Shown piece after piece: positions 1 to 32,379 of a stretch of DNA of 64,000 nucleotides. Position 1 is the first letter of the stretch, and the number at the start of each line of letters is the position of its first letter. This DNA is from Heloderma charlesbogerti. Lineage: Eukaryota; Chordata; Lepidosauria; Squamata; Helodermatidae. The stretch spans positions 763,408 through 827,407 of the forward strand of contig JANEZZ010002672.1 of NCBI GenBank assembly GCA_026122225.1. The letters are read 5' to 3'. Position numbers and translations under genes: made by a program. The notes beneath the pieces were generated by a model. The model did no database searches and was not told the origin of the DNA. It saw only the letters and a program-made list of their open reading frames with translations.

Positions 1-344
1 CTAAGACCACTACGATTCATGGCTAAGGTGAAATCTGCTCATGATTTCATGATTGCTCAGGACCTCTCAACTCATGAATGGAACTACTATGCATGCAACT
101 CCATTACCCAATAGAAGAAATAGCTTTATCTCCCTTGTATCTCCACACCAAATATTCTCAAATTTTGTGCTAGAGGTTTGCATTAATTCTGGGAAAGAAT
201 GAAAAATTGAGGCAAATGGACTTCATTCAGTTCAATTTTTCATTCATTCCAAAATGAATGCATTGAGTGTTCACTTGATACAAATGGATATGTTATTCAT
301 TGTCTCATTTTTACCCGTTCATCACTCATTTCAGGGGTGGGGGG
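1..344. other. no recognised feature (left arm)
   Basis: AT-rich sequence with short repeats of ATTCATT-type words around 220-270. I see no gene or named repeat. It is the mirror of 15399-15742. Confidence 0.5.
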
Positions 345-608
345 AGAGCCTTACCTGTCGCTCAGTGGATGCCTCCTGATGGCCACCATTTTGCCCCCGA
401 TGCTCCAGACATTGCATTGCTCTAGGGTATTATTAGTGGAACAATGGCAGCCACCAATGGGGCCACCATTTTTTTATGCTGGCTGCCATTTTTTCCAGAA
501 TGCCCCAGAATGATGCAACGTCCAAGGCATTTAGGAAAATAAAATGGTGGCTAGGAAGCAGACCCTAAAATCATCCCTGCTACAGGTAAGTTGTCTTACC
601 CTCTGATG
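345..608. mobile_element. foldback DNA element (left arm)
   Basis: The two halves are imperfect reverse complements. CTTACCTGTCGC near 351 pairs with the CTACAGGTAAG end near 590, and a CCACCATTTT / AAAATGGTGG core lies on both sides of a centre near 465. No transposase frame is present. Fits a non-autonomous foldback or MITE-type element; superfamily not determined. Confidence 0.5.
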
Positions 609-1423
609 TATGAGAGACAGCCACCCTATGCTCCAATACCAGTAATGCAAAAAATGGAATAAAATAACAGACAATGTGGGAGAGGGAGGAAAGAGTGAAG
701 TCATCTTCAGAGCACCAAGTCAGGATGGAGTTCACATGTTGTTTTATCCAGACACTTTTGACCACTGCATGACTCCTGAGGAACCAGATATAATTCTTAA
801 AGGTTAAGCACCACAAACAAATTTACCTCATGATGAGAAAAATGTCAGGGAAAAGAATTAATTAAATCTGAAAAGATGTCCACGTGTAGCCAAAGACTTA
901 CCTTGCAGTTAAATCAAGATCTTACAGTTTCTAAAATGTCAAATTCATTTTTAAAGCCAAAAAAGAGGCAAAAGAAGAAATGGAAGGGCAGAACATTCTT
1001 TGTGCAAGGATGATAATAACAAAAACCGTTAATGCTATATTTGAGCATCTCCCCCTGAAAATAAACATCGAGTATCAAAAGCAAGGTACTGTGACACAGC
1101 GCATATTTGCAAACTTATAAATCCTTAATGAGAAAAATAAAAACTGTTGAATGCCAAAGACATTTAGTCTCTGATTCATGTGATTCAGAAACGTTTTGTA
1201 GAACTGGGACACACTCAGCAATAAATATAAACATGCAATGGGAATTGGTAAGAAGAAAGATGCACAAAACATCTTAATGTCCCACAATAATTCAGCAAAA
1301 AGTGCAGGGTTGTAATCTGGGGGTTCTTCTGGACCCGGCCTTGACCCCAGGGGCCCAGGTGTCAGCTGTTGCCAAGTGTGTCTTTGCACAGCTGAAGCTG
1401 GTGAACCATGACAATGGTTCATC
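609..1423. other. no recognised feature (left arm)
   Basis: AT-rich stretch without recognisable repeat or coding sequence. Short open frames here have no recognisable domain. Mirrored at 14320-15134. Confidence 0.4.
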
Positions 1424-1740
1424 ATTATGAATGGTGGCTATTTATGAATTGCCAAAAAGAGGACACCATTTTGTATAAAATTTGCATATGCTAATTTATA
1501 TGTATAGATGAAAATTTAGAACAAATTGTTACAATGTAAATAGAAATACAATACATCTCATCACAGTACGGAAGACCTGTGTGCCTGGCTGTTCAGCCTG
1601 CTGTCCAGGAACTAACTGTTGATGGGCAACAGTTCTGATGGTTCTTTATCTTGAAAAAGGAATTGGACAGAACAGCCCTTCAAACAGAAGGCTATCCGCT
1701 GTAAAAGAACACATGGCCATGCTAGTTCAGGCTATAGATC
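1424..1740 (-). mobile_element. dispersed repeat with GGTGGC ends (left arm copy)
   Basis: Antisense relative to two other copies, 26187-26518 and 43073-43468. Shared landmarks are GTCCTCTTTTT next to one end, an AT-rich middle with TAGATG/TATTTCTATTTA words, the GCTGTTCAG..CCTG segment and a TCCTCTGT/TACAG end. No coding capacity. Probably a non-autonomous DNA element. Confidence 0.5.
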
Positions 1741-2815
1741 TACCCGTGGTGACACATGCTTTGTTACATCATATCTGGATTACTGCAATGCGCTCTACAT
1801 AGAGCTGCCTATGAAAAGTATCCAGAAACCACAACTGTGCCAGAATAGAACAGCCACATATTGGTGGGAGCCACATACTGGGAACACATGGCTCTCTTTT
1901 TGAAACAACTGCATGGGTTTCCAATACATTTATGGGACCAAGTCAGAGTGTTGTTAAAACCATCATGCTTCGGGACCAGGATATCTGAACAACTGCCTTC
2001 CCCCAGTACAAACCTGCTCATGTACTGGGATCTTCAGTGGAGGCCCTCCTGTGTGCACCAATGCCCTCAGGAGAATACTTAGATGGTGCTAGGGAGAGGG
2101 CCTTCTCAGTCAGGAAGGTTTGTTTTGCCCTCTCTTTAATGGCCTTCCATTGGATTGTTAAAAGCGTCCTTTTTAAGAAGGCTTTGGGGTCATGAGGGCG
2201 CAGGTCTGGTAACAGGTTCAGTAGGGCCTTTGCCTCCCAGTGGCCCCCCTCAGGGGCATCCCCCTCTTCCTCAGTGGTAATGCCACCCCCTCCCTTTACT
2301 TTGATGGTGGCAGGCGGCTGCAATAGCAGCAGCCCAAAATAGCCATAATATCTCTGGGGCCCCTAATATAGCACTGTTCTAGAGTGAAACTATGTGAGGG
2401 CCCTGGAGGCATTGTGGGGGAATTAAAATGGTGGGTACCAGCCACAGCCACCCAGGTGCCAGCACTGGGAGGAATGCCAGGCCCGTATGGCTGTAGACAG
2501 CATTTGGGGTTACCGCCGGTAGACTTTCCTGGAAGCAACAGCCTGGCTGTACTCACCCCTAACCCCAGGCATGTGAGTAGGGTTTTGTTTTGTATTTTAG
2601 CTCTGAAGCTCACTTGTCTTAACTTGATAGAAGCTGTCTGGTCAAATTGTTTTTAATGGCTGCTTACATATTTTGTCTTTTTATTCTGCTGTTTCTAGTG
2701 TGTGAGTGTGTGCTGCCTGTCTTTAGTGTTTTATTGTTATATTGTAATTGGGTTTTTTTAAGCTACTTTAAGCTTTGAGGGGAAAGACGTGACAAAAATG
2801 CTGTAAATAAATAAA
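1741..2815 (+). mobile_element. degenerate L2 LINE 3' fragment (left arm)
   Basis: Around 1779 the forward frame encodes LDYCNALYIELPMKSIQKPQL, very close to LDYCNALYMGLPLKTVQKLQL of the better L2 copy at 48318-49733. The frame is soon broken by stops and indels. The 3' end is an AT-rich tail finishing with AAATAAATAAAC near 2810, as expected for L2. The segment 2160-2640 is less clearly L2. Overlapping short frames on both strands are by-products. An old, inactive copy. Confidence 0.65.
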
Positions 2816-3069
2816 CTCTGTGGAACCTACTTTTGGGAGGCCAAACTGCACATTCAGCTAGTTTTATTTACCTTTGTAAGCATGCATGGCCCCGATTTGA
2901 ATTTGGACCATGCTGCTCCAGGAGGAAGGGAGGATAAACCTTCACTCTCACCCATTTTCCCTGAAATTCCACCCCCCTATGGTGGGTTATCCACCACCAC
3001 CACCTCCAGATGATAGTGGAGGAATTACTTTACTCTGGTCCTGAGTAAATGTTCATAGGCTATGGCCAC

Positions 3070-3170
3070 TAGGCCGCAATTCTCTGCACACTTACCTGGA
3101 AGTAAGCCCCACTAAACACAGCAGGACTTACTTCCAAATTGACATGGATAGGATCAGGCTTCATGATAAA
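3070..3170. repeat. short dispersed repeat, AGTAAG-type
   Basis: Contains CTTACCTGGAAGTAAGCCCC and a downstream GACTTACTTCC, an imperfect palindrome. The same motif recurs at 54030-54125 and 56690-56749. Probably a fragment of a non-autonomous DNA element. Mirrored at 12573-12673. Confidence 0.45.
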
Positions 3171-3410
3171 TTGTCACAGCAAATAACTTGGCATTCTATT
3201 GAACTTGAATTGCCACTAAATTTTACCCATAGTGGAATGTATAACTAACTGGGATGGGGGTGTTGTGCTTGAACAAATCATCTGTAAATATTCAAGGGAG
3301 GATCAAATAATGTTATTCAGAGCTTGAAAGATGTTGCCTTACTAGAACTCAACAAACTGAATTCTTGCACTCCTGAGGAAGGTCTTCTTCAAAACACATT
3401 GGGCAACAGA

Positions 3411-3831
3411 GGGCTCAGTCCTATGGGGATAATGAGCTGTCTCCGAACTCAGAGGCAACCGACTATCCAGTGCAGGTTGGGCAGAGTGTGGAGGGGATCG
3501 TCTCCTCCATGCTCCGGCTGCCCTGCACTTGTGGCTAGACAGCCGATTTCAGCAGTCTAGCTGGGGTGGCTCGGAGTGGGGGGGGAGACTGGACGGCGCA
3601 TAGGAAGCATCCTCCCTGCCCCCGGGAATGCCCCCTTTTCCCCCACTCCGCACTGCTCTTATGAGTGCAAAGCCGGGGACAAACCACACCTCCTATGAGG
3701 CAGTGGGGGAGGGGGCAGGGAGGCATTTTTCTGGGAACTGACCTTGGAATGCTGGCTCCAAGGGCACTACCCAGAAAATGAAACATCCTATGGCTTTCTA
3801 GCCGCTGTCTAGCAGCCACAGGATTGTGCCC
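3411..3831. mobile_element. Harbinger-like non-autonomous element (left arm)
   Basis: Ends are GGGCTCAGTCC and GGATTGTGCCC (reverse complement GGGCACAATCC). The interior has palindromic halves, with AGACAGC/GCTGTCTAG and TCTAGC words near both ends. TTA follows the right end; the left flank is not a clean match. A related 438-bp copy at 53356-53793 has a clean TTA target duplication. GC-rich and without transposase; short frames inside are spurious. Confidence 0.65.
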
Positions 3832-4654
3832 TTACTGTTTTATTCAAGTTCTCTATGTTTTTCAATACTATTTTGAGGCTTTCCTCTCATCTCGCACATC
3901 TTGAAGCTGCCACCAAATGTCACCTAGAGAAAATGTGGAATGTCAAACTGAATATCTATATAAATTTCAGGGGAAGTCAAAAGAATTTGAACACTATTAG
4001 CACATTTTCTCAGGAACATTCTAAACTTAACATCCTCCACAAGAGGGCTTTTGAAAGGAATTCCCCAAAGAAACATAGAAAACTGAACTGAAAATCCACA
4101 TCTCAAAGTTCCATGAGGAAGGCCTGAGGTAGATGAAAACAATGGCTCAGAGAAGCAAGTAAGGCTCAGTGTAACTGACAGATAATTTTATAATGGACAC
4201 GATGTCGGGGAAATCATGGTCCAAAAGACTGGAGGTCACACATGTTCGGAGGATTGGGTAAAGCAAATATTCATGCATGAGATTGCTCTCCTGAGAGAAG
4301 AACATCTCCAAAATGGTGGCACACATATATAGACATATAAGAGGCAGCTTCTGGGCAGGGCAGTTCTGCCTTCAAGGCGGCCTCCATGCAAGGGTTACAC
4401 AGCCAATAGCAACATTTGGTGGCAACTTACAACCAATCATATTAAGATAACACAGCAAAGGTTCTGCACATGCTCAGTTATACCTTACTCACATGGGCAT
4501 GATGATCTCACGTGGGCATGATGATCTCATCATGACTCTTGGCACATACGCAATGGTATCTGTTATGAGTGACCTGAGTACTTCAAGGCACTTCCTTGCA
4601 TGAACACAATAGAATTCCGAATGTGCTTTGTCCATCTCCAGCTATTGGAAATAG
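3832..4654. other. no recognised feature (left arm)
   Basis: AT-rich, apparently single-copy sequence. A 16-bp direct repeat (GTGGGCATGATGATCT type) sits at about 4493-4530. Mirrored at 11089-11911. Confidence 0.4.
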
Positions 4655-5036
4655 TCTCTTACTGTTCGCCCACAGGGGCTTGTTTGCTTGTGTGAAGCCT
4701 TTTTATCCTGTCCCTCAGCCAAAAAGGTTTCCAGAGTGGCTTACATAAAATCAGTAAAATAGGATAGTTCCTGCCCACAGGCTGACAATTTATTTTATTT
4801 ATTTATTTATTGCATGTATATCCTGCCTTTTTTCCTCTTGCAAGGAACCCAAGGCGGCTTACATGATCCTCCTCCTCTCCCTTTTATCCTCACAACAACA
4901 ACCCTGTGAGGTAGGTTGGGCTGAGAGTCTGTGACTGGCCCAAAGTCACCCAGTGAGCTTCCATGGCCGAGTGGGGACTAGAACCCGGATCTCTGGGCTC
5001 CCAGTCCAACACTCTAGCCAACACGATCTGGAGAAA
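4655..5036 (-). mobile_element. tRNA-headed MIR-like SINE plus LINE-type tail (left arm)
   Basis: Read on the minus strand, the 5' end near 5033 has a tRNA-like head with a GGCTAGAGTGTTGG A-box region and a GGTTCTAGTCCCC B-box region. This is followed by the conserved core GGGTGACTTTGGGCCAGTCA and CCTACCTCACAGGGTTG, then an AAATAAAT tail at about 4792-4810. The block 4655-4790 (TAAGCCACTCTGG on the minus strand) resembles the LINE tail at 51790-51895 and may be a second element. SINEs of this type are transcribed by RNA polymerase III and mobilised by LINE machinery. Confidence 0.7.
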
Positions 5037-5282
5037 TCAGCAAGGTGAAGCTTTCCAGGGCATGGAGATAAGTATTACCACTTGCTGAAAACTATAGATC
5101 ATCAAGCTGCTTTTAAGGGCACAGGAGCCAGCTGAGAAATTGGCAACCCCTGATTTTCTAGTCTTTTACTGCTTCCTCCACAACAGTACATGCTAAAGCT
5201 GCTTTCAGCATTTGCTTGTACTCTGAAATTGCCCCACTTATGCTTTTCCTAAGATGGCTATTTTCCATTGGTAGATGTTACT

Positions 5283-5834
5283 AGGGATTTACGGATCCCC
5301 TTACCTGGGGTCCGTGGGGGGGTCTGCAGGCGGGGGGAGGTGATCCGGTCCTCCCCCCGGAATCCTCTCCAGCCAGCTCCACTCCGCTGGGAGTCCACGG
5401 AGCCGCCGGCCAACTCCGGCCGCTGCTGGACTTCTGGTCATGGCCAGTCTGCGGACACAAATGGCGTCCGGCATAGGGGACTCCATTTGCATCCTGCCCT
5501 TGGCCGTGATTGGCTACGTAAATATTTATATAGCCTATCACGGCCAACGGCAGGGACACAAATGGCATCTGCTACGCCATTTGTGTCCCTGCTCTTTGTC
5601 GTGATATGCTACGTAAATATTTACGCCATTTTGCTACGCTGGACGCCATTTTGTTCCACAGCCCAGCAGCGGATGGCTGCGGAACAAAGACGGCGACCTG
5701 GACCAGCCGCCTCCAGGTAGATTCCGTCCCGGGGGGTTGCAGGGGGGTAGTCCATTCCGCCACGGACTCCAGGGGGCCGGATTCCAAAGAATCTGGCCTC
5801 ATTGGAGTCCATGGCTGATTTTTCTGCCATCCCT
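5283..5834. mobile_element. GC-rich foldback element with 10-bp target duplication (left arm)
   Basis: The 552-bp element begins AGGGAT and ends ATCCCT. It is flanked by the direct repeat AGATGTTACT (5273-5282 and 5835-5844). Inside are several inverted motifs, such as ACAAATGGC / GCCATTTGT and TACGTAAATATTTA repeated at about 5515 and 5611. A 10-bp target duplication would suit a Mutator-like or hAT-like element better than Harbinger or Tc1. The long frames on both strands are consequences of the GC-rich palindromic sequence, not genes. Confidence 0.6.
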
Positions 5835-5844
5835 AGATGTTACT

Positions 5845-7084
5845 GGGCATGTTCATTAATGTGTGAGGAACTAGATTTACATGCTAGTAGTGACGTGTTT
5901 GAGTTTTGGAGGAGGCTTCTTAGAAGAGGAGTTCTTTCACAGAAAACATAATTCTACAAGCATCTATTGCTTGAAAGTATCAAACTTTGAATGAGCTCCC
6001 TTCAACATCAGCATCCCAGTTGCTTATGGCTCAGGCAAGTTCACTTATCATATATGAAAATATATAAAAGTGAACATTTTTCAGAGAAAAAGTACAAGAA
6101 AATCATGAGAGCTTACATGTTCCCCCAAATAAGCCTGCAGACAGTTATTTCCAATCCACATGTAAAGCTAAGGGCATATATTTACCTTACAAACCCTACA
6201 CCCATATGTTTACTATATTTTGCGTGTGTATCTCACACACAAAGTTTATACAGAGATGATACTAAATTTATTTGTTAACTACCTTGAGACCCTTTAAGCT
6301 ATAAGATGGGACAGAATGAATAAACAAACAAACAAATGCCACCTTTTAAAAAACAAAACTTTCTAAATCAGGCCATCTCTTAAAGCACTTATATCCAGTC
6401 CTTAAATATTTCATAAACTATTTCCCCATGCGTATACAAAAATGACTCATTCTTTCGCTAATTGCCAATATGTCACTGCTAAATATACATGTGCAGTTGA
6501 CGGACTGGCCCACCATTCGCTGCTTACAGGAGAGAAGATGGTTGGGGCTTGTGGGGGGAGGTGCAGCAGCAGCAGCAAAAAAAGTGTGTGGGGGGGAAGC
6601 AGCTGTCACAATAGTATTGGTGCTCAGGCAGAGTAAGCAGCCCAGGCGGGCACAAATTCCATTATCTCAGCCTTATCCTCTAATCCTACCATTCTATGGA
6701 GACGTGTTGTTACAGGCCCCAGCTGCCATGCCCTGTTAGTTACCATCAGCTGTTCACCACAGTGGACTCTCAAGGGAACACCAAGTCCGCAGCTTTCATC
6801 TATGGACTACAGATGTTAAATCAATTCTGCTCTCTCCCAACCACCACTCCCTCCCACCCCTTCACACACATACACAAAATTTGGGCATATTTTCTGCAGA
6901 CCCTCAATCACTGCATTAATGTTTTGCCATAGAAGGGGGAGGTGTCCATGCAAGACATTGATACTAGCTCTGTGTTTCTTTCTTATTGTTATTTAAGCTA
7001 CAGCTAGCAGAATTATATATTCTCATTTCTGACTTGATCAGGAGGTTAAGGGATTGCAGCTGCCAGACTACTCTCTTGTTTTAC
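5845..7084. other. mostly unrecognised; LINE/SINE tail at 6270-6340
   Basis: No gene recognised. Positions 6270-6340 read like a retroposon 3' end (ACTACCTTGAGACC followed by ATAAACAAACAAACAAAT). A CAGCAGCAGCAGC run lies near 6563. Mirrored at 8659-9898. Confidence 0.4.
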
Positions 7085-7201
7085 TTTATTTATTTATTTA
7101 TTTATTTAATCCCTATTAAACTCTTAAGACTCAACTATCTAAAGATGCTATTCTCTCCTTAATTGCCGCTGTTGCTGGTAAATCTCTCTCTCTCTCTCTC
7201 T
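7085..7201. repeat. (TTTA)n and (TC)n microsatellites (left arm)
   Basis: A TTTA tetranucleotide run at 7085-7108 and a TC dinucleotide run at 7183-7201. Confidence 0.85.
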
Positions 7202-7584
7202 AGCTTCTGAGATGCTGAAGGTGAAGGAAATGTGTAGCTTCATTCAATCTTTGCTCCTCCAAGATCTGCATACATTACTCTACAACCACGAATGTAGGGG
7301 CTGTGATTGAATTTGCCTTCCCTATTACTGAATTAGTGTCAGCTATGGTGGAGGGTCATCCATACATGGGGCAGAGTAAAGGACACAAAAAGGCACACTG
7401 ATGCAATGGTTGATAGTACAGATCTGAGATTTTGTTCAACCATTGAAAGTTGGGAAGGCAGATGCAAACGAAATCAGAACTCCTGCGACTTTAATAGTAG
7501 TGTAGAAGAGGACATTTTCAGTAGGCTCTGATTACTGCATAACAAGTTCCACTGGCCCAAATTCTCCATCTGCATAAATTTAAA
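7202..7584. other. no recognised feature (left arm)
   Basis: No repeat family or coding exon recognised. Mirrored at 8159-8541. Confidence 0.4.
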
Positions 7585-7765
7585 GATACAGGAGCTGGTG
7601 CTGTGCCAAGAATTTCTTCCACATTTAAAAAAAAGCATTCTCATTCAATTTGATAGAAAATAAATTGCTTTCGAGAAGAAATTCAGAGAACAAATTTCAG
7701 AGAACTTCTGGGTTGGGGTTGGGTTATAAGGTGGCTAAGCAGTGTGCATGAATGTCCTGTCTTGG
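7585..7765 (-). repeat. dispersed repeat shared with 21610-21810 (left arm)
   Basis: In reverse it matches 21610-21810. Shared words in order are GACAGGACA, CCCAACCCCAACCC, TCTCTGAAATTT, TCGAAAGCAATTT, AAATTGAATGAGAATG and an ATGTGG.AGAAAT block. Family unknown to me. Confidence 0.5.
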
Positions 7766-7814
7766 GGTAAAATCCAACATAACTCCTACTTAGAGTAGAC
7801 CCATTGAAATGAAT
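7766..7814 (+). mobile_element. Harbinger-like element cut at the adapter junction
   Basis: Begins GGGTAAAATCCAACATAACT and runs through CCCATTGAAATGAAT, matching the terminal part of the 38445-38632 element in reverse (GGGTAGTATCCAATGTTAGT, CAATTGAAATGAAT). It stops at the adapter boundary. This is what the end of a randomly broken insert would look like. Confidence 0.55.
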
Positions 7815-7928
7815 ATCTCTCTCTTTTCATCAACATCAACCGCACACCGTCCTCCGGGGTGTGTGTTTTTATTTTTTCACTCACCCCGGTGGTCGGTGTG
7901 CGGTTGTTGTTGTTGAAAAGAGAGAGAT
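7815..7928. other. retained sequencing hairpin adapter (SMRTbell-like)
   Basis: Two 51-nt arms (7815-7865 and 7878-7928) fold on a 12-nt loop of five T, one A and six T. The stem is perfect except for five T.T mismatches at 7830/7913, 7836/7907, 7850/7893, 7853/7890 and 7862/7881. All mismatches being T against T suggests design rather than mutation. The left end reads ATCTCTCTCTTTTC and the right end contains GTTGTTGTTGTTG followed by AGAGAGAT. From memory, these are the ends of the PacBio SMRTbell hairpin adapter. The middle differs from the classic 45-nt version, so this would be a longer variant. The outermost A/T could come from A-tailing and T-overhang ligation. It is not genomic DNA. 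Confidence 0.92.
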
Positions 7929-7977
7929 ATTCATTTCAATGGGTCTACTCTAAGTAGGAGTTATGTTGGATTTTACC

Positions 7978-8158
7978 CCAAGACAGGACATTCATGCACA
8001 CTGCTTAGCCACCTTATAACCCAACCCCAACCCAGAAGTTCTCTGAAATTTGTTCTCTGAATTTCTTCTCGAAAGCAATTTATTTTCTATCAAATTGAAT
8101 GAGAATGCTTTTTTTTAAATGTGGAAGAAATTCTTGGCACAGCACCAGCTCCTGTATC
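7978..8158 (+). repeat. dispersed repeat shared with 21610-21810 (right arm)
   Basis: Mirror of 7585-7765, here in the same orientation as the copy at 21610-21810. Confidence 0.5.
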
Positions 8159-9908
8159 TTTAAATTTATGCAGATGGAGAATTTGGGCCAGTGGAACTTG
8201 TTATGCAGTAATCAGAGCCTACTGAAAATGTCCTCTTCTACACTACTATTAAAGTCGCAGGAGTTCTGATTTCGTTTGCATCTGCCTTCCCAACTTTCAA
8301 TGGTTGAACAAAATCTCAGATCTGTACTATCAACCATTGCATCAGTGTGCCTTTTTGTGTCCTTTACTCTGCCCCATGTATGGATGACCCTCCACCATAG
8401 CTGACACTAATTCAGTAATAGGGAAGGCAAATTCAATCACAGCCCCTACATTCGTGGTTGTAGAGTAATGTATGCAGATCTTGGAGGAGCAAAGATTGAA
8501 TGAAGCTACACATTTCCTTCACCTTCAGCATCTCAGAAGCTAGAGAGAGAGAGAGAGAGATTTACCAGCAACAGCGGCAATTAAGGAGAGAATAGCATCT
8601 TTAGATAGTTGAGTCTTAAGAGTTTAATAGGGATTAAATAAATAAATAAATAAATAAAGTAAAACAAGAGAGTAGTCTGGCAGCTGCAATCCCTTAACCT
8701 CCTGATCAAGTCAGAAATGAGAATATATAATTCTGCTAGCTGTAGCTTAAATAACAATAAGAAAGAAACACAGAGCTAGTATCAATGTCTTGCATGGACA
8801 CCTCCCCCTTCTATGGCAAAACATTAATGCAGTGATTGAGGGTCTGCAGAAAATATGCCCAAATTTTGTGTATGTGTGTGAAGGGGTGGGAGGGAGTGGT
8901 GGTTGGGAGAGAGCAGAATTGATTTAACATCTGTAGTCCATAGATGAAAGCTGCGGACTTGGTGTTCCCTTGAGAGTCCACTGTGGTGAACAGCTGATGG
9001 TAACTAACAGGGCATGGCAGCTGGGGCCTGTAACAACACGTCTCCATAGAATGGTAGGATTAGAGGATAAGGCTGAGATAATGGAATTTGTGCCCGCCTG
9101 GGCTGCTTACTCTGCCTGAGCACCAATACTATTGTGACAGCTGCTTCCCCCCCACACACTTTTTTTGCTGCTGCTGCTGCACCTCCCCCCACAAGCCCCA
9201 ACCATCTTCTCTCCTGTAAGCAGCGAATGGTGGGCCAGTCCGTCAACTGCACATGTATATTTAGCAGTGACATATTGGCAATTAGCGAAAGAATGAGTCA
9301 TTTTTGTATACGCATGGGGAAATAGTTTATGAAATATTTAAGGACTGGATATAAGTGCTTTAAGAGATGGCCTGATTTAGAAAGTTTTGTTTTTTAAAAG
9401 GTGGCATTTGTTTGTTTGTTTATTCATTCTGTCCCATCTTATAGCTTAAAGGGTCTCAAGGTAGTTAACAAATAAATTTAGTATCATCTCTGTATAAACT
9501 TTGTGTGTGAGATACACACGCAAAATATAGTAAACATATGGGTGTAGGGTTTGTAAGGTAAATATATGCCCTTAGCTTTACATGTGGATTGGAAATAACT
9601 GTCTGCAGGCTTATTTGGGGGAACATGTAAGCTCTCATGATTTTCTTGTACTTTTTCTCTGAAAAATGTTCACTTTTATATATTTTCATATATGATAAGT
9701 GAACTTGCCTGAGCCATAAGCAACTGGGATGCTGATGTTGAAGGGAGCTCATTCAAAGTTTGATACTTTCAAGCAATAGATGCTTGTAGAATTATGTTTT
9801 CTGTGAAAGAACTCCTCTTCTAAGAAGCCTCCTCCAAAACTCAAACACGTCACTACTAGCATGTAAATCTAGTTCCTCACACATTAATGAACATGCCCAG
9901 TAACATCT

Positions 9909-10460
9909 AGGGATGGCAGAAAAATCAGCCATGGACTCCAATGAGGCCAGATTCTTTGGAATCCGGCCCCCTGGAGTCCGTGGCGGAATGGACTACCCCC
10001 CTGCAACCCCCCGGGACGGAATCTACCTGGAGGCGGCTGGTCCAGGTCGCCGTCTTTGTTCCGCAGCCATCCGCTGCTGGGCTGTGGAACAAAATGGCGT
10101 CCAGCGTAGCAAAATGGCGTAAATATTTACGTAGCATATCACGACAAAGAGCAGGGACACAAATGGCGTAGCAGATGCCATTTGTGTCCCTGCCGTTGGC
10201 CGTGATAGGCTATATAAATATTTACGTAGCCAATCACGGCCAAGGGCAGGATGCAAATGGAGTCCCCTATGCCGGACGCCATTTGTGTCCGCAGACTGGC
10301 CATGACCAGAAGTCCAGCAGCGGCCGGAGTTGGCCGGCGGCTCCGTGGACTCCCAGCGGAGTGGAGCTGGCTGGAGAGGATTCCGGGGGGAGGACCGGAT
10401 CACCTCCCCCCGCCTGCAGACCCCCCCACGGACCCCAGGTAAGGGGATCCGTAAATCCCT
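9909..10460. mobile_element. GC-rich foldback element (right arm)
   Basis: Mirror of 5283-5834. The target duplication reads AGTAACATCT at 9899-9908 and 10461-10470. Confidence 0.6.
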
Positions 10461-10706
10461 AGTAACATCTACCAATGGAAAATAGCCATCTTAGGAAAAG
10501 CATAAGTGGGGCAATTTCAGAGTACAAGCAAATGCTGAAAGCAGCTTTAGCATGTACTGTTGTGGAGGAAGCAGTAAAAGACTAGAAAATCAGGGGTTGC
10601 CAATTTCTCAGCTGGCTCCTGTGCCCTTAAAAGCAGCTTGATGATCTATAGTTTTCAGCAAGTGGTAATACTTATCTCCATGCCCTGGAAAGCTTCACCT
10701 TGCTGA

Positions 10707-11088
10707 TTTCTCCAGATCGTGTTGGCTAGAGTGTTGGACTGGGAGCCCAGAGATCCGGGTTCTAGTCCCCACTCGGCCATGGAAGCTCACTGGGTGACTT
10801 TGGGCCAGTCACAGACTCTCAGCCCAACCTACCTCACAGGGTTGTTGTTGTGAGGATAAAAGGGAGAGGAGGAGGATCATGTAAGCCGCCTTGGGTTCCT
10901 TGCAAGAGGAAAAAAGGCAGGATATACATGCAATAAATAAATAAATAAAATAAATTGTCAGCCTGTGGGCAGGAACTATCCTATTTTACTGATTTTATGT
11001 AAGCCACTCTGGAAACCTTTTTGGCTGAGGGACAGGATAAAAAGGCTTCACACAAGCAAACAAGCCCCTGTGGGCGAACAGTAAGAGA
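10707..11088 (+). mobile_element. tRNA-headed MIR-like SINE plus LINE-type tail (right arm)
   Basis: Mirror of 4655-5036 in sense orientation. The A-box region GTTGGCTAGAGTGTTGG is near 10722, the B-box region GGGTTCTAGTCCCC near 10758, and the tail AATAAATAAATAAAAT near 10932. Confidence 0.7.
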
Positions 11089-11911
11089 CTATTTCCAATA
11101 GCTGGAGATGGACAAAGCACATTCGGAATTCTATTGTGTTCATGCAAGGAAGTGCCTTGAAGTACTCAGGTCACTCATAACAGATACCATTGCGTATGTG
11201 CCAAGAGTCATGATGAGATCATCATGCCCACGTGAGATCATCATGCCCATGTGAGTAAGGTATAACTGAGCATGTGCAGAACCTTTGCTGTGTTATCTTA
11301 ATATGATTGGTTGTAAGTTGCCACCAAATGTTGCTATTGGCTGTGTAACCCTTGCATGGAGGCCGCCTTGAAGGCAGAACTGCCCTGCCCAGAAGCTGCC
11401 TCTTATATGTCTATATATGTGTGCCACCATTTTGGAGATGTTCTTCTCTCAGGAGAGCAATCTCATGCATGAATATTTGCTTTACCCAATCCTCCGAACA
11501 TGTGTGACCTCCAGTCTTTTGGACCATGATTTCCCCGACATCGTGTCCATTATAAAATTATCTGTCAGTTACACTGAGCCTTACTTGCTTCTCTGAGCCA
11601 TTGTTTTCATCTACCTCAGGCCTTCCTCATGGAACTTTGAGATGTGGATTTTCAGTTCAGTTTTCTATGTTTCTTTGGGGAATTCCTTTCAAAAGCCCTC
11701 TTGTGGAGGATGTTAAGTTTAGAATGTTCCTGAGAAAATGTGCTAATAGTGTTCAAATTCTTTTGACTTCCCCTGAAATTTATATAGATATTCAGTTTGA
11801 CATTCCACATTTTCTCTAGGTGACATTTGGTGGCAGCTTCAAGATGTGCGAGATGAGAGGAAAGCCTCAAAATAGTATTGAAAAACATAGAGAACTTGAA
11901 TAAAACAGTAA

Positions 11912-12332
11912 GGGCACAATCCTGTGGCTGCTAGACAGCGGCTAGAAAGCCATAGGATGTTTCATTTTCTGGGTAGTGCCCTTGGAGCCAGCATTCCAAG
12001 GTCAGTTCCCAGAAAAATGCCTCCCTGCCCCCTCCCCCACTGCCTCATAGGAGGTGTGGTTTGTCCCCGGCTTTGCACTCATAAGAGCAGTGCGGAGTGG
12101 GGGAAAAGGGGGCATTCCCGGGGGCAGGGAGGATGCTTCCTATGCGCCGTCCAGTCTCCCCCCCCACTCCGAGCCACCCCAGCTAGACTGCTGAAATCGG
12201 CTGTCTAGCCACAAGTGCAGGGCAGCCGGAGCATGGAGGAGACGATCCCCTCCACACTCTGCCCAACCTGCACTGGATAGTCGGTTGCCTCTGAGTTCGG
12301 AGACAGCTCATTATCCCCATAGGACTGAGCCC
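11912..12332. mobile_element. Harbinger-like non-autonomous element (right arm)
   Basis: Mirror of 3411-3831, starting GGGCACAATCC after TAA and ending GGACTGAGCCC. Confidence 0.65.
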
Positions 12333-12927
12333 TCTGTTGCCCAATGTGTTTTGAAGAAGACCTTCCTCAGGAGTGCAAGAATTCAGTTTGTTGAGTTCTA
12401 GTAAGGCAACATCTTTCAAGCTCTGAATAACATTATTTGATCCTCCCTTGAATATTTACAGATGATTTGTTCAAGCACAACACCCCCATCCCAGTTAGTT
12501 ATACATTCCACTATGGGTAAAATTTAGTGGCAATTCAAGTTCAATAGAATGCCAAGTTATTTGCTGTGACAATTTATCATGAAGCCTGATCCTATCCATG
12601 TCAATTTGGAAGTAAGTCCTGCTGTGTTTAGTGGGGCTTACTTCCAGGTAAGTGTGCAGAGAATTGCGGCCTAGTGGCCATAGCCTATGAACATTTACTC
12701 AGGACCAGAGTAAAGTAATTCCTCCACTATCATCTGGAGGTGGTGGTGGTGGATAACCCACCATAGGGGGGTGGAATTTCAGGGAAAATGGGTGAGAGTG
12801 AAGGTTTATCCTCCCTTCCTCCTGGAGCAGCATGGTCCAAATTCAAATCGGGGCCATGCATGCTTACAAAGGTAAATAAAACTAGCTGAATGTGCAGTTT
12901 GGCCTCCCAAAAGTAGGTTCCACAGAG

Positions 12928-14002
12928 TTTATTTATTTACAGCATTTTTGTCACGTCTTTCCCCTCAAAGCTTAAAGTAGCTTAAAAAAACCCAATTACA
13001 ATATAACAATAAAACACTAAAGACAGGCAGCACACACTCACACACTAGAAACAGCAGAATAAAAAGACAAAATATGTAAGCAGCCATTAAAAACAATTTG
13101 ACCAGACAGCTTCTATCAAGTTAAGACAAGTGAGCTTCAGAGCTAAAATACAAAACAAAACCCTACTCACATGCCTGGGGTTAGGGGTGAGTACAGCCAG
13201 GCTGTTGCTTCCAGGAAAGTCTACCGGCGGTAACCCCAAATGCTGTCTACAGCCATACGGGCCTGGCATTCCTCCCAGTGCTGGCACCTGGGTGGCTGTG
13301 GCTGGTACCCACCATTTTAATTCCCCCACAATGCCTCCAGGGCCCTCACATAGTTTCACTCTAGAACAGTGCTATATTAGGGGCCCCAGAGATATTATGG
13401 CTATTTTGGGCTGCTGCTATTGCAGCCGCCTGCCACCATCAAAGTAAAGGGAGGGGGTGGCATTACCACTGAGGAAGAGGGGGATGCCCCTGAGGGGGGC
13501 CACTGGGAGGCAAAGGCCCTACTGAACCTGTTACCAGACCTGCGCCCTCATGACCCCAAAGCCTTCTTAAAAAGGACGCTTTTAACAATCCAATGGAAGG
13601 CCATTAAAGAGAGGGCAAAACAAACCTTCCTGACTGAGAAGGCCCTCTCCCTAGCACCATCTAAGTATTCTCCTGAGGGCATTGGTGCACACAGGAGGGC
13701 CTCCACTGAAGATCCCAGTACATGAGCAGGTTTGTACTGGGGGAAGGCAGTTGTTCAGATATCCTGGTCCCGAAGCATGATGGTTTTAACAACACTCTGA
13801 CTTGGTCCCATAAATGTATTGGAAACCCATGCAGTTGTTTCAAAAAGAGAGCCATGTGTTCCCAGTATGTGGCTCCCACCAATATGTGGCTGTTCTATTC
13901 TGGCACAGTTGTGGTTTCTGGATACTTTTCATAGGCAGCTCTATGTAGAGCGCATTGCAGTAATCCAGATATGATGTAACAAAGCATGTGTCACCACGGG
14001 TA
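12928..14002 (-). mobile_element. degenerate L2 LINE 3' fragment (right arm)
   Basis: Mirror of 1741-2815. The LDYCNALY block is on the minus strand near 13950. Confidence 0.65.
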
Positions 14003-14319
14003 GATCTATAGCCTGAACTAGCATGGCCATGTGTTCTTTTACAGCGGATAGCCTTCTGTTTGAAGGGCTGTTCTGTCCAATTCCTTTTTCAAGATAAAGA
14101 ACCATCAGAACTGTTGCCCATCAACAGTTAGTTCCTGGACAGCAGGCTGAACAGCCAGGCACACAGGTCTTCCGTACTGTGATGAGATGTATTGTATTTC
14201 TATTTACATTGTAACAATTTGTTCTAAATTTTCATCTATACATATAAATTAGCATATGCAAATTTTATACAAAATGGTGTCCTCTTTTTGGCAATTCATA
14301 AATAGCCACCATTCATAAT
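14003..14319 (+). mobile_element. dispersed repeat with GGTGGC ends (right arm)
   Basis: Mirror of 1424-1740, here in the same orientation as the copies at 26187 and 43073. Confidence 0.5.
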
Positions 14320-15134
14320 GATGAACCATTGTCATGGTTCACCAGCTTCAGCTGTGCAAAGACACACTTGGCAACAGCTGACACCTGGGCCCCTGGGGTC
14401 AAGGCCGGGTCCAGAAGAACCCCCAGATTACAACCCTGCACTTTTTGCTGAATTATTGTGGGACATTAAGATGTTTTGTGCATCTTTCTTCTTACCAATT
14501 CCCATTGCATGTTTATATTTATTGCTGAGTGTGTCCCAGTTCTACAAAACGTTTCTGAATCACATGAATCAGAGACTAAATGTCTTTGGCATTCAACAGT
14601 TTTTATTTTTCTCATTAAGGATTTATAAGTTTGCAAATATGCGCTGTGTCACAGTACCTTGCTTTTGATACTCGATGTTTATTTTCAGGGGGAGATGCTC
14701 AAATATAGCATTAACGGTTTTTGTTATTATCATCCTTGCACAAAGAATGTTCTGCCCTTCCATTTCTTCTTTTGCCTCTTTTTTGGCTTTAAAAATGAAT
14801 TTGACATTTTAGAAACTGTAAGATCTTGATTTAACTGCAAGGTAAGTCTTTGGCTACACGTGGACATCTTTTCAGATTTAATTAATTCTTTTCCCTGACA
14901 TTTTTCTCATCATGAGGTAAATTTGTTTGTGGTGCTTAACCTTTAAGAATTATATCTGGTTCCTCAGGAGTCATGCAGTGGTCAAAAGTGTCTGGATAAA
15001 ACAACATGTGAACTCCATCCTGACTTGGTGCTCTGAAGATGACTTCACTCTTTCCTCCCTCTCCCACATTGTCTGTTATTTTATTCCATTTTTTGCATTA
15101 CTGGTATTGGAGCATAGGGTGGCTGTCTCTCATA

Positions 15135-15398
15135 CATCAGAGGGTAAGACAACTTACCTGTAGCAGGGATGATTTTAGGGTCTGCTTCCTAGCCACCATT
15201 TTATTTTCCTAAATGCCTTGGACGTTGCATCATTCTGGGGCATTCTGGAAAAAATGGCAGCCAGCATAAAAAAATGGTGGCCCCATTGGTGGCTGCCATT
15301 GTTCCACTAATAATACCCTAGAGCAATGCAATGTCTGGAGCATCGGGGGCAAAATGGTGGCCATCAGGAGGCATCCACTGAGCGACAGGTAAGGCTCT
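15135..15398. mobile_element. foldback DNA element (right arm)
   Basis: Mirror of 345-608. Confidence 0.5.
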
Positions 15399-15804
15399 CC
15401 CCCCACCCCTGAAATGAGTGATGAACGGGTAAAAATGAGACAATGAATAACATATCCATTTGTATCAAGTGAACACTCAATGCATTCATTTTGGAATGAA
15501 TGAAAAATTGAACTGAATGAAGTCCATTTGCCTCAATTTTTCATTCTTTCCCAGAATTAATGCAAACCTCTAGCACAAAATTTGAGAATATTTGGTGTGG
15601 AGATACAAGGGAGATAAAGCTATTTCTTCTATTGGGTAATGGAGTTGCATGCATAGTAGTTCCATTCATGAGTTGAGAGGTCCTGAGCAATCATGAAATC
15701 ATGAGCAGATTTCACCTTAGCCATGAATCGTAGTGGTCTTAGGGGAGCACGTTTTCTCCCAGCCACAACCCAACCCCCACTATCTGGAATATGGAGAAAA
15801 CAGT

Positions 15805-16110
15805 ACTTAATTACTAGACTTATATCCTGTCTTCCATCAAGGAGCCCAGTGCAGCATACAGAAGCATTTTTGCTATTCATTTAATTCCCCACAACAACCC
15901 TTTGGGTAGGTTAGGATGACAGAAACTGCCCTGTCATCCAGCAGAGTTGGCAAATCCAGAAACGAAAACTTTGGGTATATGGGTGAGGTACTTATTATTA
16001 TGAAAACCCAGGGTGTTCTATGGCTGAGCGGAGCTGAGCTCTAGTCTTCCTGGTCTAAGACAGCTTGCTTTTGACTACACCATACTGGCTCTCCCTAAGG
16101 GCTGTTTTAA
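15805..16110 (-). mobile_element. old MIR-like tRNA SINE, antisense
   Basis: Diverged copy of the SINE type seen at 10707-10953. The order on the plus strand is a degraded 3' part (TATATCCTGTCTTCCATCAA), the core CACAACAACCCTTTGGGTAG, a less clear middle that may hold a small insertion, and a tRNA-like 5' head ending ACACCATACTGGCTCTC near 16094. Confidence 0.55.
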
Positions 16111-16232
16111 GGATTGCTGTGTAGCAAGCAGTTTGAATAGTAAAAATACACAATATGAATGTTCAGATGATGATGATGAAGCAGGCTTTCAGTTTATACA
16201 AAATCCTTCTTAATAACTTGTATCCCTTATGC

Positions 16233-16764
16233 CAAAGGTAGGCAATCTTTTTGGCCTATGGACATATTTGGCGATATGAGAAACTGTTGTGGGCACCACC
16301 ACAAAATGGCTGCCATGGGAGGCTTGTCTAGTCACAAAGGACAGGTAACCTGCCAAAATGACTGTGTACATTCAGAGGTGAAGTCTGAACCACAACACAC
16401 TAAACAACTTCTTTGAACACATCGTTTTCAGCGCCAACAGAAACCTATTTCACAGAAGGCAAACTCTTTTTCTTCCTGCTCCCTCCTCTGCTAGCCAACC
16501 GATTCTCCCCATCTCTTTTTCTCACTCTGGGTCATGACCCATAGATGCTTCCTCTCTCCCCCCTCCCTTCCCTCCTCCCTCCTTCTCTCTCTCTCTCTCT
16601 CTCTCTCATCTTTATTTCCTAAGCGTGTCTCTGAGACCCTATCATGTAGCCCAGAGGCATCCATGGGAAATGAAGATGGCAGCAGCTGGAGGTAGCTTGG
16701 CAGGCACCAAGAAAGTTATAAAGGGGCACATTGGTGTCTGTGGGCACCACATTGCCTACCCCTG
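16233..16764. mobile_element. hAT-like non-autonomous element
   Basis: Ends CAAAGGTAGGCAAT and ATTGCCTACCCCTG are inverted repeats with the CAGGGGT-type terminus typical of hAT elements. Flanks CCTTATGC (16225-16232) and CCTTATGT (16765-16772) match at 7 of 8 bases, the hAT target length. A related copy is 61497-62357. The CT-rich centre includes a (TC)n run near 16580-16607. No transposase frame. Confidence 0.75.
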
Positions 16765-16772
16765 CCTTATGT

Positions 16773-18177
16773 GATGGACCAAATGATATGGCAACAGCCA
16801 TATTTACCACAGAGTATGAAAAGACAAGAAGGAAAATATGATGGCTATTTTCTTTTGGATGTGTGCACTGCCTTTGGATTAGGCATTTCAAGCATCTTAA
16901 TGAAATGTTTGCAGTAATATAATGATCTATCATTTTGGTAGTCTTACCATCTGCTTCTATCACAGGAAGGGGGGATTAATACATTTCCCACTGCCAAATC
17001 ATCTAGTAAAACCTGTCAACATCGCCTTGATAAGGTTACTTTTTTTTTTTTAATTGATTTGGCTCCATAGAATAAAATACCCAGTACAATAAAAAGCTGA
17101 AATACTGGGGGAAGAGGACTCTGGGTAATTGCCAAGTAGCATTTTTTGGCAGCTCACGGTACATGATGTTTATATGGGATATGGGACATGAAACAAGTAT
17201 ATTTTGGTGATGTAAGGAGTAGCTGCTTGCAGTATATCTTAGTTTAGGGGGATACTGTTGTGTGTGCCACTGCAGACCAGTTCCAGTCCTTACAGGCTGA
17301 GGGGTATAGTTCTCTCACGGGACAGTACGAGCTTAGTCTTCATGTGTGGAGTCACTGGGCACTACCCAAGGCGACAGTAGCACTCATGCACGTTACTTTG
17401 TGCTAGTGTAGGCGGCCTCTAGCCCAACTCCAATAGGGGCACAAGAGGCTTTCTGGGGGAACCTGTCGCACCAACAAATGCTATGAGACTTGCTCTAGAG
17501 GGTGCTAATGCAAGCGTGATGTAAATTGGTGCTAATATCGACTTGGATGATGCCTTTTGTTTGAAGCACCGCCTTTGAAGAACTGTGTCTCATGTCACAA
17601 CATCCTATCTCTGAAAGAGGAGTGGAAACAAACCTATTTTCCGAGGTCACAAGTTTGAACATGGAATCTGATTTCATAGGGAAATTTTTAATAACAACAA
17701 AAGGAAAGGGGGGGGGAAGTGGTGGAGAACAACACCATCTGCATGCAATAATTATTAATTATTTTGATATTATTGTGACTTATTTTTATTATATGTTACT
17801 GCAACCAGAATCCCACTTGCAGCCTGAAGTGGTACGGTCCATTCTGCCACCTTAGTCTGCTGCATGAGTAGATCCAGACAAAGAGTATCTCCATGAATAT
17901 GCCCTACAAATAAGCAGAAATAACAAGGCGAGGCATGGAGGGCTGGATAAACTACAGCCATAACTTCACTGAATTAACAACCCTGATCTGCAATGTGTGG
18001 GTCTCACTAGGTTAGCTAATAAGGCTGACCTGGTCTTGAGCCCTGGCACAGCCCAAATGTCTGTCACCACTCTCTGTTTAGGTGTTGAGGGGTACCTTCC
18101 TGAGTCCCAACCCCTCAGGCCCCACAGCTAAGTGTGTGAGCCATTCAAGTCCCAAAGGGGGCTCCTTCCCCACCCCA
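16773..18177. other. no recognised feature
   Basis: No gene or named repeat recognised. There is a poly-T run near 17040. Short frames show no domain I can identify. Confidence 0.4.
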
Positions 18178-18226
18178 AGTCCCACACCCCGAGTTCCAGG
18201 TGGTAGGTCCTGGAAATCCCCCTTTC
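18178..18226. repeat. 49-bp near-identical repeat, copy A
   Basis: Matches 21065-21113 at 48 of 49 positions, while the flanks differ. It contains CCAGGTGGTAGGTCCTGG, itself nearly palindromic. Confidence 0.75.
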
Positions 18227-18455
18227 ACCTTAAAGGTGCCTCTGGATGCTCATCAAAGCCTCTCTCAATATGTGCCCTACCTGCACTGCTTGCCAGTTGT
18301 GACTAGGCAGGAAGAGAATGGGAAGAGGTAGTTCTTCAGATATTGCAGGCTCTATCTGCCTGCATATTTGTGGGTACTTGAGTTTTTGCTTTCTCTCCCA
18401 AATACCTGAGGGGTTGAGGGTAAGGTGTCTTCTTCTGTTGTCAAGGGTAGTGGGG

Positions 18456-18570
18456 TACAGGGGAGGCTGGTGGATCGATTTTGGTGGGGCTGAGATTCCA
18501 TTCTAGGTTTTAGGTACAACCCGCCAGACGTCTAAAGGAGCTATCCAAGGTGCTGGGCCCTTTTTGAGGA
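18456..18570. mobile_element. half copy of a CAGGGGAGGC hAT-like foldback
   Basis: Starts CAGGGGAGGCTGGTGGATC and continues GAGATTCCATTCT and TCTAAAGGAGCTATCCAAGG, matching the left half of the intact element at 37957-38175. The right half is missing or diverged. Confidence 0.6.
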
Positions 18571-18859
18571 TAGCCCATATCCATAATGAGACATCCTTGG
18601 GACAAACTGAGTTTAATTTCCAGAGGCAAAGTCAGTGGAAACAGCTAAATTCATTCAGTTTGAGAACCAGGAAAAATATCACACCCTCAAAACAGGCTAC
18701 ATTGTTCTGTTCCTGTTTACAGCACAACAGGTCAGCTTTGAGAGGAGGGGTTACCAAAAAAAAGTCTTCCAGTCACCAGCACCATTTAAGAAAGAGGAAG
18801 AGCACAGGGAGGCAATTCCCCAGTCTGTCTTTCACTAGCTCACTAGTTTGACATACTAA

Positions 18860-18972
18860 AGGTGCAATCCTATGCATGTTTAGACAGAAAAAAGGTCTAC
18901 AGTTCCTAGCACACCAGGCATGCTGGGAGTTGTAGGACTTTTTTCAGTCTAAACATGCATAGGATTGTGCCC
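18860..18972. mobile_element. 113-bp hairpin MITE, Harbinger-like
   Basis: Near-perfect palindrome. AGGTGCAATCCTATGCATG at one end pairs with CATGCATAGGATTGTGCCC at the other, with TTTAGACAG and TGGGAGTTGTAG inside. TAA flanks both sides (18857-18859 and 18973-18975), the 3-bp TWA target typical of PIF/Harbinger elements. A second copy is at 40074-40178. Confidence 0.75.
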
Positions 18973-19216
18973 TAAGGTGCTTTAATTGTGCCAGTGCCCT
19001 GCCTCATCCACAGATTTTTACTGGGGACCTGAAGATGACATCTTCTGTTTGCAGCCGCCTGTGCTTTCCCACTGCTGCTTCCATCGTTTTTTTTCTTACC
19101 ACAGAATACCTGTGAAGGAGTGAAAGACAGAATAGCTGCACAAGAAACCCTCTATTTGGAAATACCCTAGCTGGCAATGATAATATTCAATTAAGCTACC
19201 CTAGCATTAGATAAGT

Positions 19217-19510
19217 ATGTCAAAGGCACAAATCCCTGTGCTATTTTTTTATTTTATTTTGAAGATGACATGTGTGGGTGGGATGCCTGTGCTGATAACA
19301 TTGCTGCAGTTATTGCGAGAGATGAAAAAGCTATTGCAACAAATGCTTTCAAAATCCACTGCTGTTTTACAATTGATTTTGCTGAGGCTCTTGTCACTCC
19401 CTCCGCATGCACACATTCTTCCACCCTATGCAAGGGGTGCACCCCTCTATAGGCTCCACCCCCTCTGCCCTGCAAGCCCCACTGACAAGGGCTCCTTGGC
19501 AGCCTCTTTC
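19217..19510. other. no recognised feature
   Basis: Open on both strands for about 70-100 codons, but without a recognisable domain. No repeat identified. Confidence 0.3.
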
Positions 19511-20060
19511 AGTCTAATCCAGTAGCCAAGTCCAGACACAGACAAAGGGATTCTTTTCAAAGCTTTATTCCTTTTTTTACAACTTAACAACTCTACTATT
19601 AGCGACTAGCTATGAGCAGCAGAGTACCTATGCCCTCAGTTGGAACAGTTGGTCCCCGTTTGAAGGAGAATCACTGGCAGACCCTGAACTTATGGGCTGG
19701 GGAGAATCCTTCCCCTTTTCCTTTGGATCCTCTGGGTGCAACCATTGCTTGCGCGCCAACCGGGCACTACACCTCCTTTCCGTGCCCTCCGTTTGGCGCC
19801 GCTCCCTGCGTCGGCATCGCTCGTCCAGCAGGCCCTCTTCCCACACTCTCTCACTCCCGGGACCGCTATCTATGTCAGGAATGCCGGTGGGAGGAATTTC
19901 TGCCAGCTGTTGGCCCTGGGAAGGATGAGCGCGCTCCTCTCCCAGGAGTGGCTGCTCCACCTCAGAATCAGAACTACTCTGGGATTCTATGGGCTCAGTG
20001 TCCACCCTGATACCCACCCCCTCCACAAGCCCCACCCCTTCCAGGGGTTGTAGAGGATAA
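19511..20060 (-). mobile_element. possible retrotransposon fragment with 135-codon frame
   Basis: On the minus strand a 135-codon frame (20035 to 19628) is rich in Ser, Glu and Arg, with stretches such as SSDSEVEQPLLGEE and RCRRRERR. Downstream on the same strand, near 19565, is AATAAAGCTTTG, a plausible polyadenylation signal. The layout would suit a retroelement 3' region or LTR, but I recognise no conserved domain and frames are also open on the other strand. Treat as unproven. Confidence 0.3.
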
Positions 20061-20159
20061 GGGAAGAGGAATCCCCCACCCTGTTATCTCCAATCACAGA
20101 TAGGAGATAACAGCAGGGATTCCCCTTGACTGTTGCTTCACTGTGCATGGGGCTTCTCT

Positions 20160-20435
20160 GACTAGGAAAGCCCATGTGCAGCAAAGCCAGGACAGAGCCA
20201 GCCATGTCCCCTTAGCTTCTCATTGCAGGAGTCAAGGGGATTCGGCCGGCTTGGCTCCACCTGCTCCACCTCCTTCCCCCACTGCAGGATGGTGGTGGGG
20301 TGGCCTAAGCCAGGAATAAGCCAGCGGTGTCCCCTTTGCTTCTCCAATGCAGAAGGGAAGGAGATGTGGCCAGCTGGGTCCTGGCTTCGACTGCCCCATC
20401 TCATTCCCCCATTGCAGCACACAGTGAAGCTTGGT
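20160..20435. repeat. two diverged tandem copies, about 124-bp unit
   Basis: The block from 20185 (AGCCAGGACAGAGCCAGCC, CTTCTC..TGCAG, CCCCCACTGCAG) recurs from 20309 (AGCCAGGAATAAGCCAGCG, CTTCTCCAATGCAG, CCCCCATTGCAG). This explains the long open frames on both strands. Confidence 0.6.
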
Positions 20436-21064: not shown

Positions 21065-21113
21065 AGTCCCACACCCCGAGGTCCAGGTGGTAGGTCCTGG
21101 AAATCCCCCTTTC
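21065..21113. repeat. 49-bp near-identical repeat, copy B
   Basis: See 18178-18226. Immediately upstream the word ATTAGGTAGAATTAGGTAG is a small local duplication. Confidence 0.75.
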
Positions 21114-21412
21114 TGTGCACAAATGGCTTCTCAAAATTCTCCAGCCTATTTGTGGGCAGAGAAATTAGGGGGGACAATTTCTAGGGGAGGAGAAATTCTC
21201 ACAACAGTTTCTCACAGATAAGGCTCACTATTGGCAGGGATTGTAGCACAGGTTCTTTCTTTGTTCCTCAGGGTTTTTGGTTTATTGCACAGCTTCTGTA
21301 GGTGGCAACAGCATCAATTGTATTGAGGCTTCCACTTTTTTGAGGCAGAAATTTGAATTTCTTTTGGTGGTATTTTTGAGCTTACCTAATCATTGTGAGG
21401 TGGCCAAGGGTG

Positions 21413-21448
<36 letters not shown>

Positions 21449-21470
21449 CTCTCTCTCTCTCTCTCTCTCG
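21413..21470. repeat. compound (GT)n-(CT)n microsatellite
   Basis: GT run from about 21416 to 21446, followed directly by CT to about 21469. Confidence 0.9.

Positions 21471-32348: not shown

Positions 32349-32379
<31 letters not shown>

What the first reader, a model, noticed from the sequence alone, without database searches (positions are those of the whole stretch)
7815..7928. Retained SMRTbell-like hairpin adapter at the palindrome centre
The apex is a 51-bp stem with five T.T mismatches and a T5-A-T6 loop. Mutation would not give only T against T, but oligonucleotide design would. The outer ends ATCTCTCTCTTTTC and GTTGTTGTTGTTG..AGAGAGAT match the PacBio adapter as I recall it. An adapter in a finished assembly means this part of the contig is contaminated and structurally false.
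Basis: partly seen in the sequence, partly recalled or inferred. Interest (0 to 1): 0.9.

Follow-up and report, generated by a model that had tools for sequence, protein, structure and literature searches.

The report
Leftover sequencing hairpin adapter folds contig
A 114-base, apparently man-made hairpin of the PacBio library-adapter type was left in this genome assembly, and the contig turns back on itself there, so its last 56 kilobases are a false mirror copy; it is an artefact, not biology.

Summary
Window 7815-7928 is a 114-nt hairpin: 51 stem positions with five mismatches, all T against T, and a TTTTTATTTTTT loop. It sits at the centre of a palindrome far larger than the window shows. 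The right arm (7929-64000) runs to the last base of the 827,407-bp contig; the left arm is contig 715152-771221. The arms (56,072 and 56,070 bp) differ by 4 substitutions and 3 indel sites. The 114-mer lies at one place in the 2.3 Gb assembly. A 1.7-kb arm piece matches in full length only at the two arms.

The hairpin shares the PacBio blunt adapter's first 14 bases, its GTTGTTGTTGTTGA block and its last 9 bases, in order. It is not that 45-mer, and its letters were found in no held paper. With VecScreen-like settings the two PacBio sequences printed in papers do not detect it.

Best reading: a variant SMRTbell-type adapter was missed when the read was split; the resulting insert-adapter-mirror read made the assembler fold the contig back. 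Contig 771222-827407 is structurally false. Kit and maker are unproven, and no reads were seen.

The parts
7815..7928 (.). 114-nt adapter-like hairpin (contig 771222-771335)
   Evidence: Sequence and pairing; one place in 2.3 Gb; blocks shared with the PacBio 45-mer
7815..7865 (+). 5' half of the stem; mismatched T at 7830, 7836, 7850, 7853, 7862; 7815-7828 equals the first 14 nt of the PacBio blunt adapter
7866..7877 (+). loop TTTTTATTTTTT
7878..7928 (+). 3' half of the stem; mismatched T at 7881, 7890, 7893, 7907, 7913; 7903-7916 equals adapter positions 25-38 and 7920-7928 the last 9 nt of the PacBio blunt adapter
1..7814 (+). inner part of the left arm, taken as the genuine one; it goes on left of the window to contig 715152 (56,070 bp in all)
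7929..64000 (-). right arm, 56,072 bp, mirror copy of the left arm, taken as the false duplicate; ends on the contig's last base
   Evidence: 99.975% identity, 4 substitutions and 3 indel sites
24359..55559 (.). differences from the left arm: 2-bp indel at 24359-24360; substitutions at 28276, 28605, 36081, 55559; 4-bp indels at 52545 (missing here) and 54679-54682 (extra here)
   Evidence: from the alignment

Best explanation
The 114 nt are a synthetic hairpin adapter of the PacBio SMRTbell type, in a variant longer than the published 45-mer. Shown: the hairpin, its partial match to the known adapter, its single copy, and two near-identical mirror arms of which the right one ends at the contig end. 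Inferred: in a SMRTbell the polymerase reads one insert strand, goes round the hairpin and reads the other strand. The adapter was not recognised when the raw read was cut into subreads, so a read of the form mirror(insert)-adapter-insert entered the assembly. That read overlaps genuine reads on both of its sides, in opposite orientation. The assembler therefore walked rightwards to the insert end (contig 771221), through the adapter, and back over the same locus for 56 kb until the contig stopped. The few arm differences suggest that the way back used reads of the other haplotype. The genuine contig very likely ends at 771221; what follows there in the genome is unknown.
For: Ordered match to the PacBio adapter's first 14 nt, GTT block, TCCTCC core and last 9 nt: gapped score 26.7 against at most 14.8 in 2000 shuffles and at most 13.0 in up to 5000 random window segments (adapter as printed in PMC10172123). 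Mismatches of one type only. Exact centre of two 56-kb mirror arms, the first 16,430 bp identical. One place in 2.3 Gb, so not a repeat family. A 1.7-kb arm piece has only two full-length matches, both here. Described mechanism: a missed SMRTbell adapter gives a palindromic read (PMC6218980, passages); described error class: contigs with an inverted duplicate beside the adapter (PMC8864876, Results section).
Against: It is not the known adapter: the longest exact match is 14 nt, and other places in the window match the 45-mer over up to 13 nt, so single blocks mean little and only their ordered combination counts. Published SMRTbell derivatives seen here (barcoded, PMC11393041; Tn5-flanked, PMC11226609) keep the 45-mer intact, unlike this one. 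No paper held prints the 114-mer's letters, and no collection searched holds it. It occurs only once in the assembly, so recurrence beside unrelated inserts could not be shown. No reads were seen.
Confidence: 0.9

Rival explanations
1. The hairpin is man-made but not a PacBio product: a custom or another maker's hairpin adapter, or one carried over from another library, that borrows the SMRTbell end sequences. The fold-back mechanism is the same.
For: The 114-mer is not the 45-mer and was found in no paper held; laboratories do make their own SMRTbell derivatives; only one copy survives in the assembly.
Against: The derivatives seen keep the 45-mer whole, whereas this hairpin is redesigned throughout, from the ends inwards; nothing held here points to another maker.
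Confidence: 0.07
2. A real inverted duplication of about 56 kb with a natural hairpin or inserted element at its centre, for example a natural closed hairpin end.
For: Large near-identical palindromes exist in animal genomes (established knowledge, not tested here); arm differences (4 substitutions, 3 indel sites) could be read as divergence since a recent duplication.
Against: Blocks of the PacBio adapter at both junctions; the right arm stops exactly where the contig stops, with no unique sequence beyond it; the 114-mer has no relatives in the genome and no Rfam match.
Confidence: 0.015
3. A palindromic chimera made by whole-genome amplification before sequencing.
For: Whole-genome amplification often makes artificial palindromes (start of abstract of PMC6218980).
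Against: Amplification alone would not place a 114-nt hairpin with adapter ends at the centre.
Confidence: 0.015

Closest known systems
Pacific Biosciences blunt (SMRTbell) adapter, UniVec NGB00972.1, 45 nt (as printed in PMC10172123)
   Same: First 14 nt, GTTGTTGTTGTTGA block, a TCCTCC core and last 9 nt, in the same order; self-complementary ends; joins the two strands of an insert
   Different: 114 nt against 45; the stem has 51 positions with five T.T mismatches, where the known one pairs only its outer 9 bases; loop TTTTTATTTTTT
Adapter-flanked inverted-duplicate contigs, type D of PMC8864876 (Results section)
   Same: Contig with an inverted duplicate beside an adapter, otherwise ordinary sequence
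   Different: There the adapter is the known 45-mer, found by BLAST screening; here it escapes VecScreen-like settings with the two printed PacBio sequences
Palindromic reads from a missed SMRTbell adapter (PMC6218980, passages)
   Same: Sequence followed by its own mirror around a missed adapter
   Different: Seen here in an assembled contig with 56-kb arms; the read itself was not seen

Membership tests
PacBio blunt adapter NGB00972.1 (exact) | Identity with the 45-mer | tested here: not met
   Longest exact match 14 nt; three separate blocks plus a short core
SMRTbell-type hairpin adapter (class) | Self-complementary hairpin that closes the insert end | tested here: met
   Stem and loop, at the exact centre of mirror arms
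SMRTbell-type hairpin adapter (class) | SMRTbell end sequences and internal blocks in order | tested here: met
   Score 26.7 against control maxima of 14.8 and 13.0
SMRTbell-type hairpin adapter (class) | Recurs beside unrelated inserts | tested here: inconclusive
   One place in the own assembly; none in the other collections, but these are poor in the known 45-mer too
SMRTbell-type hairpin adapter (class) | Listed by a maker or in UniVec / FCS-adaptor | not testable with these tools
   No such list held; paper searches found no print of it
Adapter fold-back misassembly | Mirror copy of the locus beside the adapter | tested here: met
   56-kb arms at 99.975%
Adapter fold-back misassembly | Reads do not support the fold at normal depth | not testable with these tools
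   No reads held

The most novel reading that the evidence does not exclude
The 114-mer is an adapter version not covered by the adapter sequences that published HiFi filters print, so contigs of other recent assemblies may carry the same hidden hairpin with tens of kilobases of false inverted duplication.
Probability: 0.4. Interest if true: 0.4.

Novelty: not a real feature. Interest (0 to 1): 0.2.

Why it matters
Taken at face value, the last 56 kb of this contig would be read as a very young inverted duplication, and the contig's end would be mis-scaffolded. More generally, in a VecScreen-like test the printed 45-mer and C2 primer did not flag this 114-mer, so it is worth adding to adapter lists and looking for in other assemblies.

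Tried and rejected
Absence from collections as evidence: the 28-nt core has 0 exact matches in genome contigs and viral contigs, the right-hand 28 nt have 0 in viral contigs, and the hairpin has no match in E. coli genomes and only chance-level rows in plasmids (2 records) and phages (7 records), 19-28 nt long with E of 3 to 4. I give this little weight: the known 45-mer is likewise absent from genome contigs and E. coli, has 13 plasmid records none of which covers 80% of it (5 of 13 listed), and is in 1 viral contig.

Natural RNA hairpin or repeat element: Rfam gives 0 matches at gathering scores in 7500-8300 and the 114-mer is at one place only. Rejected.

Palindrome ending at 16.5 kb: an ungapped comparison seemed to show this; gapped comparison showed a 2-bp repeat-length difference, after which the palindrome goes on to the contig end.

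An uninterrupted copy of the locus, to show what lies beyond the insert end: not found. The sequence 50-250 nt from the adapter belongs to interspersed repeats (46 places within 2 mismatches for a 32-mer; 183 within 3 mismatches for a 44-mer, both counts with the two arms). For window 8250-9950, 105 candidates arose and 40 were scored; 2 of the 40 are full length, both in the arms, and 38 are pieces of about 37-61 bases. The 27 nt next to the adapter have no further copy within 5 substitutions in the window, L006, L007, L011-L016 and L019-L024 (the other loci were not scanned). The contig's first 10 kb shows only a 125-bp inverted repeat, no long fold-back.

Papers: ATCTCTCTCTTTTC is in 15 papers; I read passages of 7 of the 15, one of them (PMC8864876) with its Results section. 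Pieces of the 114-mer were sought (5 terms, 0 papers; 6 terms; only AAAAGAGAGAGAT found, in 2 papers that print the known adapter's reverse complement). A sequence broken by spaces in print, or held only in supplements, would be missed. Three searches for the mechanism or a stem-mismatch adapter were seen as listings only and gave nothing used; led to PMC6218980.

Full report
WHERE IT IS. The window is the last 64,000 bases of an 827,407-bp contig (C2441) in an unnamed assembly of 2,302,168,690 bases in 3246 contigs. The species is not given.

THE HAIRPIN. Window 7815-7928 is 114 nt. Its stem has 51 positions: 46 Watson-Crick pairs and five mismatches, every one T against T, closed by the loop TTTTTATTTTTT. 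On the other strand these read A against A, so the rule is 'one mismatch type only', whichever strand was synthesised. If each mismatch came from one random substitution, all five being T.T has a probability of about 3e-6 with no transition bias and 9e-8 with a strong one.

LIKENESS TO THE PACBIO ADAPTER. The PacBio blunt adapter is printed with its UniVec number NGB00972.1 in PMC10172123 (passage) and used in PMC8864876 (passages; Results section). The 114-mer has that adapter's first 14 bases at its own 5' end, GTTGTTGTTGTTGA near its 3' end and the last nine bases at its 3' end, with a short TCCTCC match between. The gapped alignment scores 26.7; 2000 shuffles of the 114-mer reach 14.8 at most, and up to 5000 random window segments reach 13.0. 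Single blocks prove little: other places in the window share up to 13 nt with the 45-mer; the ordered set is what stands out. So it is a longer relative of the known adapter, not the adapter itself. Two published derivatives seen in passages, a barcoded one (PMC11393041) and a Tn5-flanked one (PMC11226609), keep the 45-mer whole, which this hairpin does not. Pieces of it in both orientations were sought in 5.39 million open papers: one search found 0 papers, and one search found only one short term, in 2 papers that print the known adapter's reverse complement.

THE PALINDROME. The window alone shows mirror arms cut by its left edge (1-7865 and 7878-15742). With 60 kb to the left added (L002-L007), the left arm is contig 715152-771221 (56,070 bp) and the right arm is window 7929-64000 (56,072 bp), ending on the contig's last base. 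They align at 99.975% with 4 substitutions and 3 indel sites of 2, 4 and 4 bp. The first 16,430 bp from the adapter are identical. The 11.7 kb fetched left of contig 715152 have no mirror partner, since the contig stops.

COPY NUMBER. The 114-mer lies at one place in the assembly, matched on both strands because it is a hairpin; its 28-nt core is found once forward and never in reverse, with 0 in the reversed-pattern control. Of the 40 scored matches (of 105 candidates) to window 8250-9950, 2 are full length, the two arms; the other 38 are pieces of about 37-61 bases at one end of the query. No third copy shows what lies beyond the insert end.

HOW IT AROSE. A missed SMRTbell adapter yields a palindromic read (PMC6218980, passages), and contigs with an inverted duplicate beside the adapter are a described error class (PMC8864876). 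That paper found adapter in 53 of 55 public HiFi sets, never above 0.25% of reads. The inference for this contig: a folded read joined the locus to its own mirror, and the walk went back for 56 kb, probably over reads of the other haplotype, which would explain the few differences. That the differences are allelic is inferred; no reads were seen.

WHY IT MAY HAVE SURVIVED. With VecScreen-like BLAST settings the two PacBio sequences printed in papers hit neither the 114-mer nor the window, while the positive control (the 45-mer in viral contig IMGVR_UViG_3300046167_000019, L008) is hit over all 45 nt. With low-complexity filtering off, only the 14-nt and shorter pieces appear (first 30 rows seen). 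Current UniVec and FCS-adaptor releases were not available, so whether they list the 114-mer is open.

WHAT SPEAKS AGAINST. The hairpin is not identical with any adapter seen here, it was found in no other source, and its single copy gives no recurrence beside unrelated inserts. The other collections say little either way, because the known 45-mer is nearly absent from them too. The standard 45-mer could not be sought in the own genome (the tool stayed busy).

VERDICT. The damage is larger than stated: contig 771222-827407 (window 7815-64000, 88% of the window) should be treated as false. As biology it is not a real feature; its use is as a warning and as a sequence to add to adapter screens.

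Noticed in passing
window 34534-36660 (+) and 48209-49477 (+): Long open frames with reverse-transcriptase domains (RVT_1, E 8e-35 and 7e-25; 2 of 5 frames tested), remnants of retrotransposons; both lie in the right arm and so are mirrored in the left arm.
   Followed up: partly
window 36198-36740 and 37364-37906: A 543-bp direct repeat about 1.2 kb apart, 92% identical, inside each arm (window positions computed from the distances given there).
   Followed up: no
window 5517-5625 and its mirror 10118-10226; window 18856-18976: Short imperfect inverted repeats (50-nt arms at 86%, 56-nt arms at 82%, each with 9 nt between).
   Followed up: no
window about 7600-7770 and its mirror: Interspersed repeat sequence near the insert end: 46 places within 2 mismatches for a 32-mer and 183 within 3 mismatches for a 44-mer in the assembly.
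   Followed up: partly
L008:2335-2379 (IMGVR_UViG_3300046167_000019): The standard 45-nt PacBio adapter sits intact at the end of the stored stretch of a public viral contig.
   Followed up: partly
L026:2630-3461 (contig C2441 start): A 125-bp inverted repeat, 98.4% identical, in the first 10 kb of the contig.
   Followed up: no
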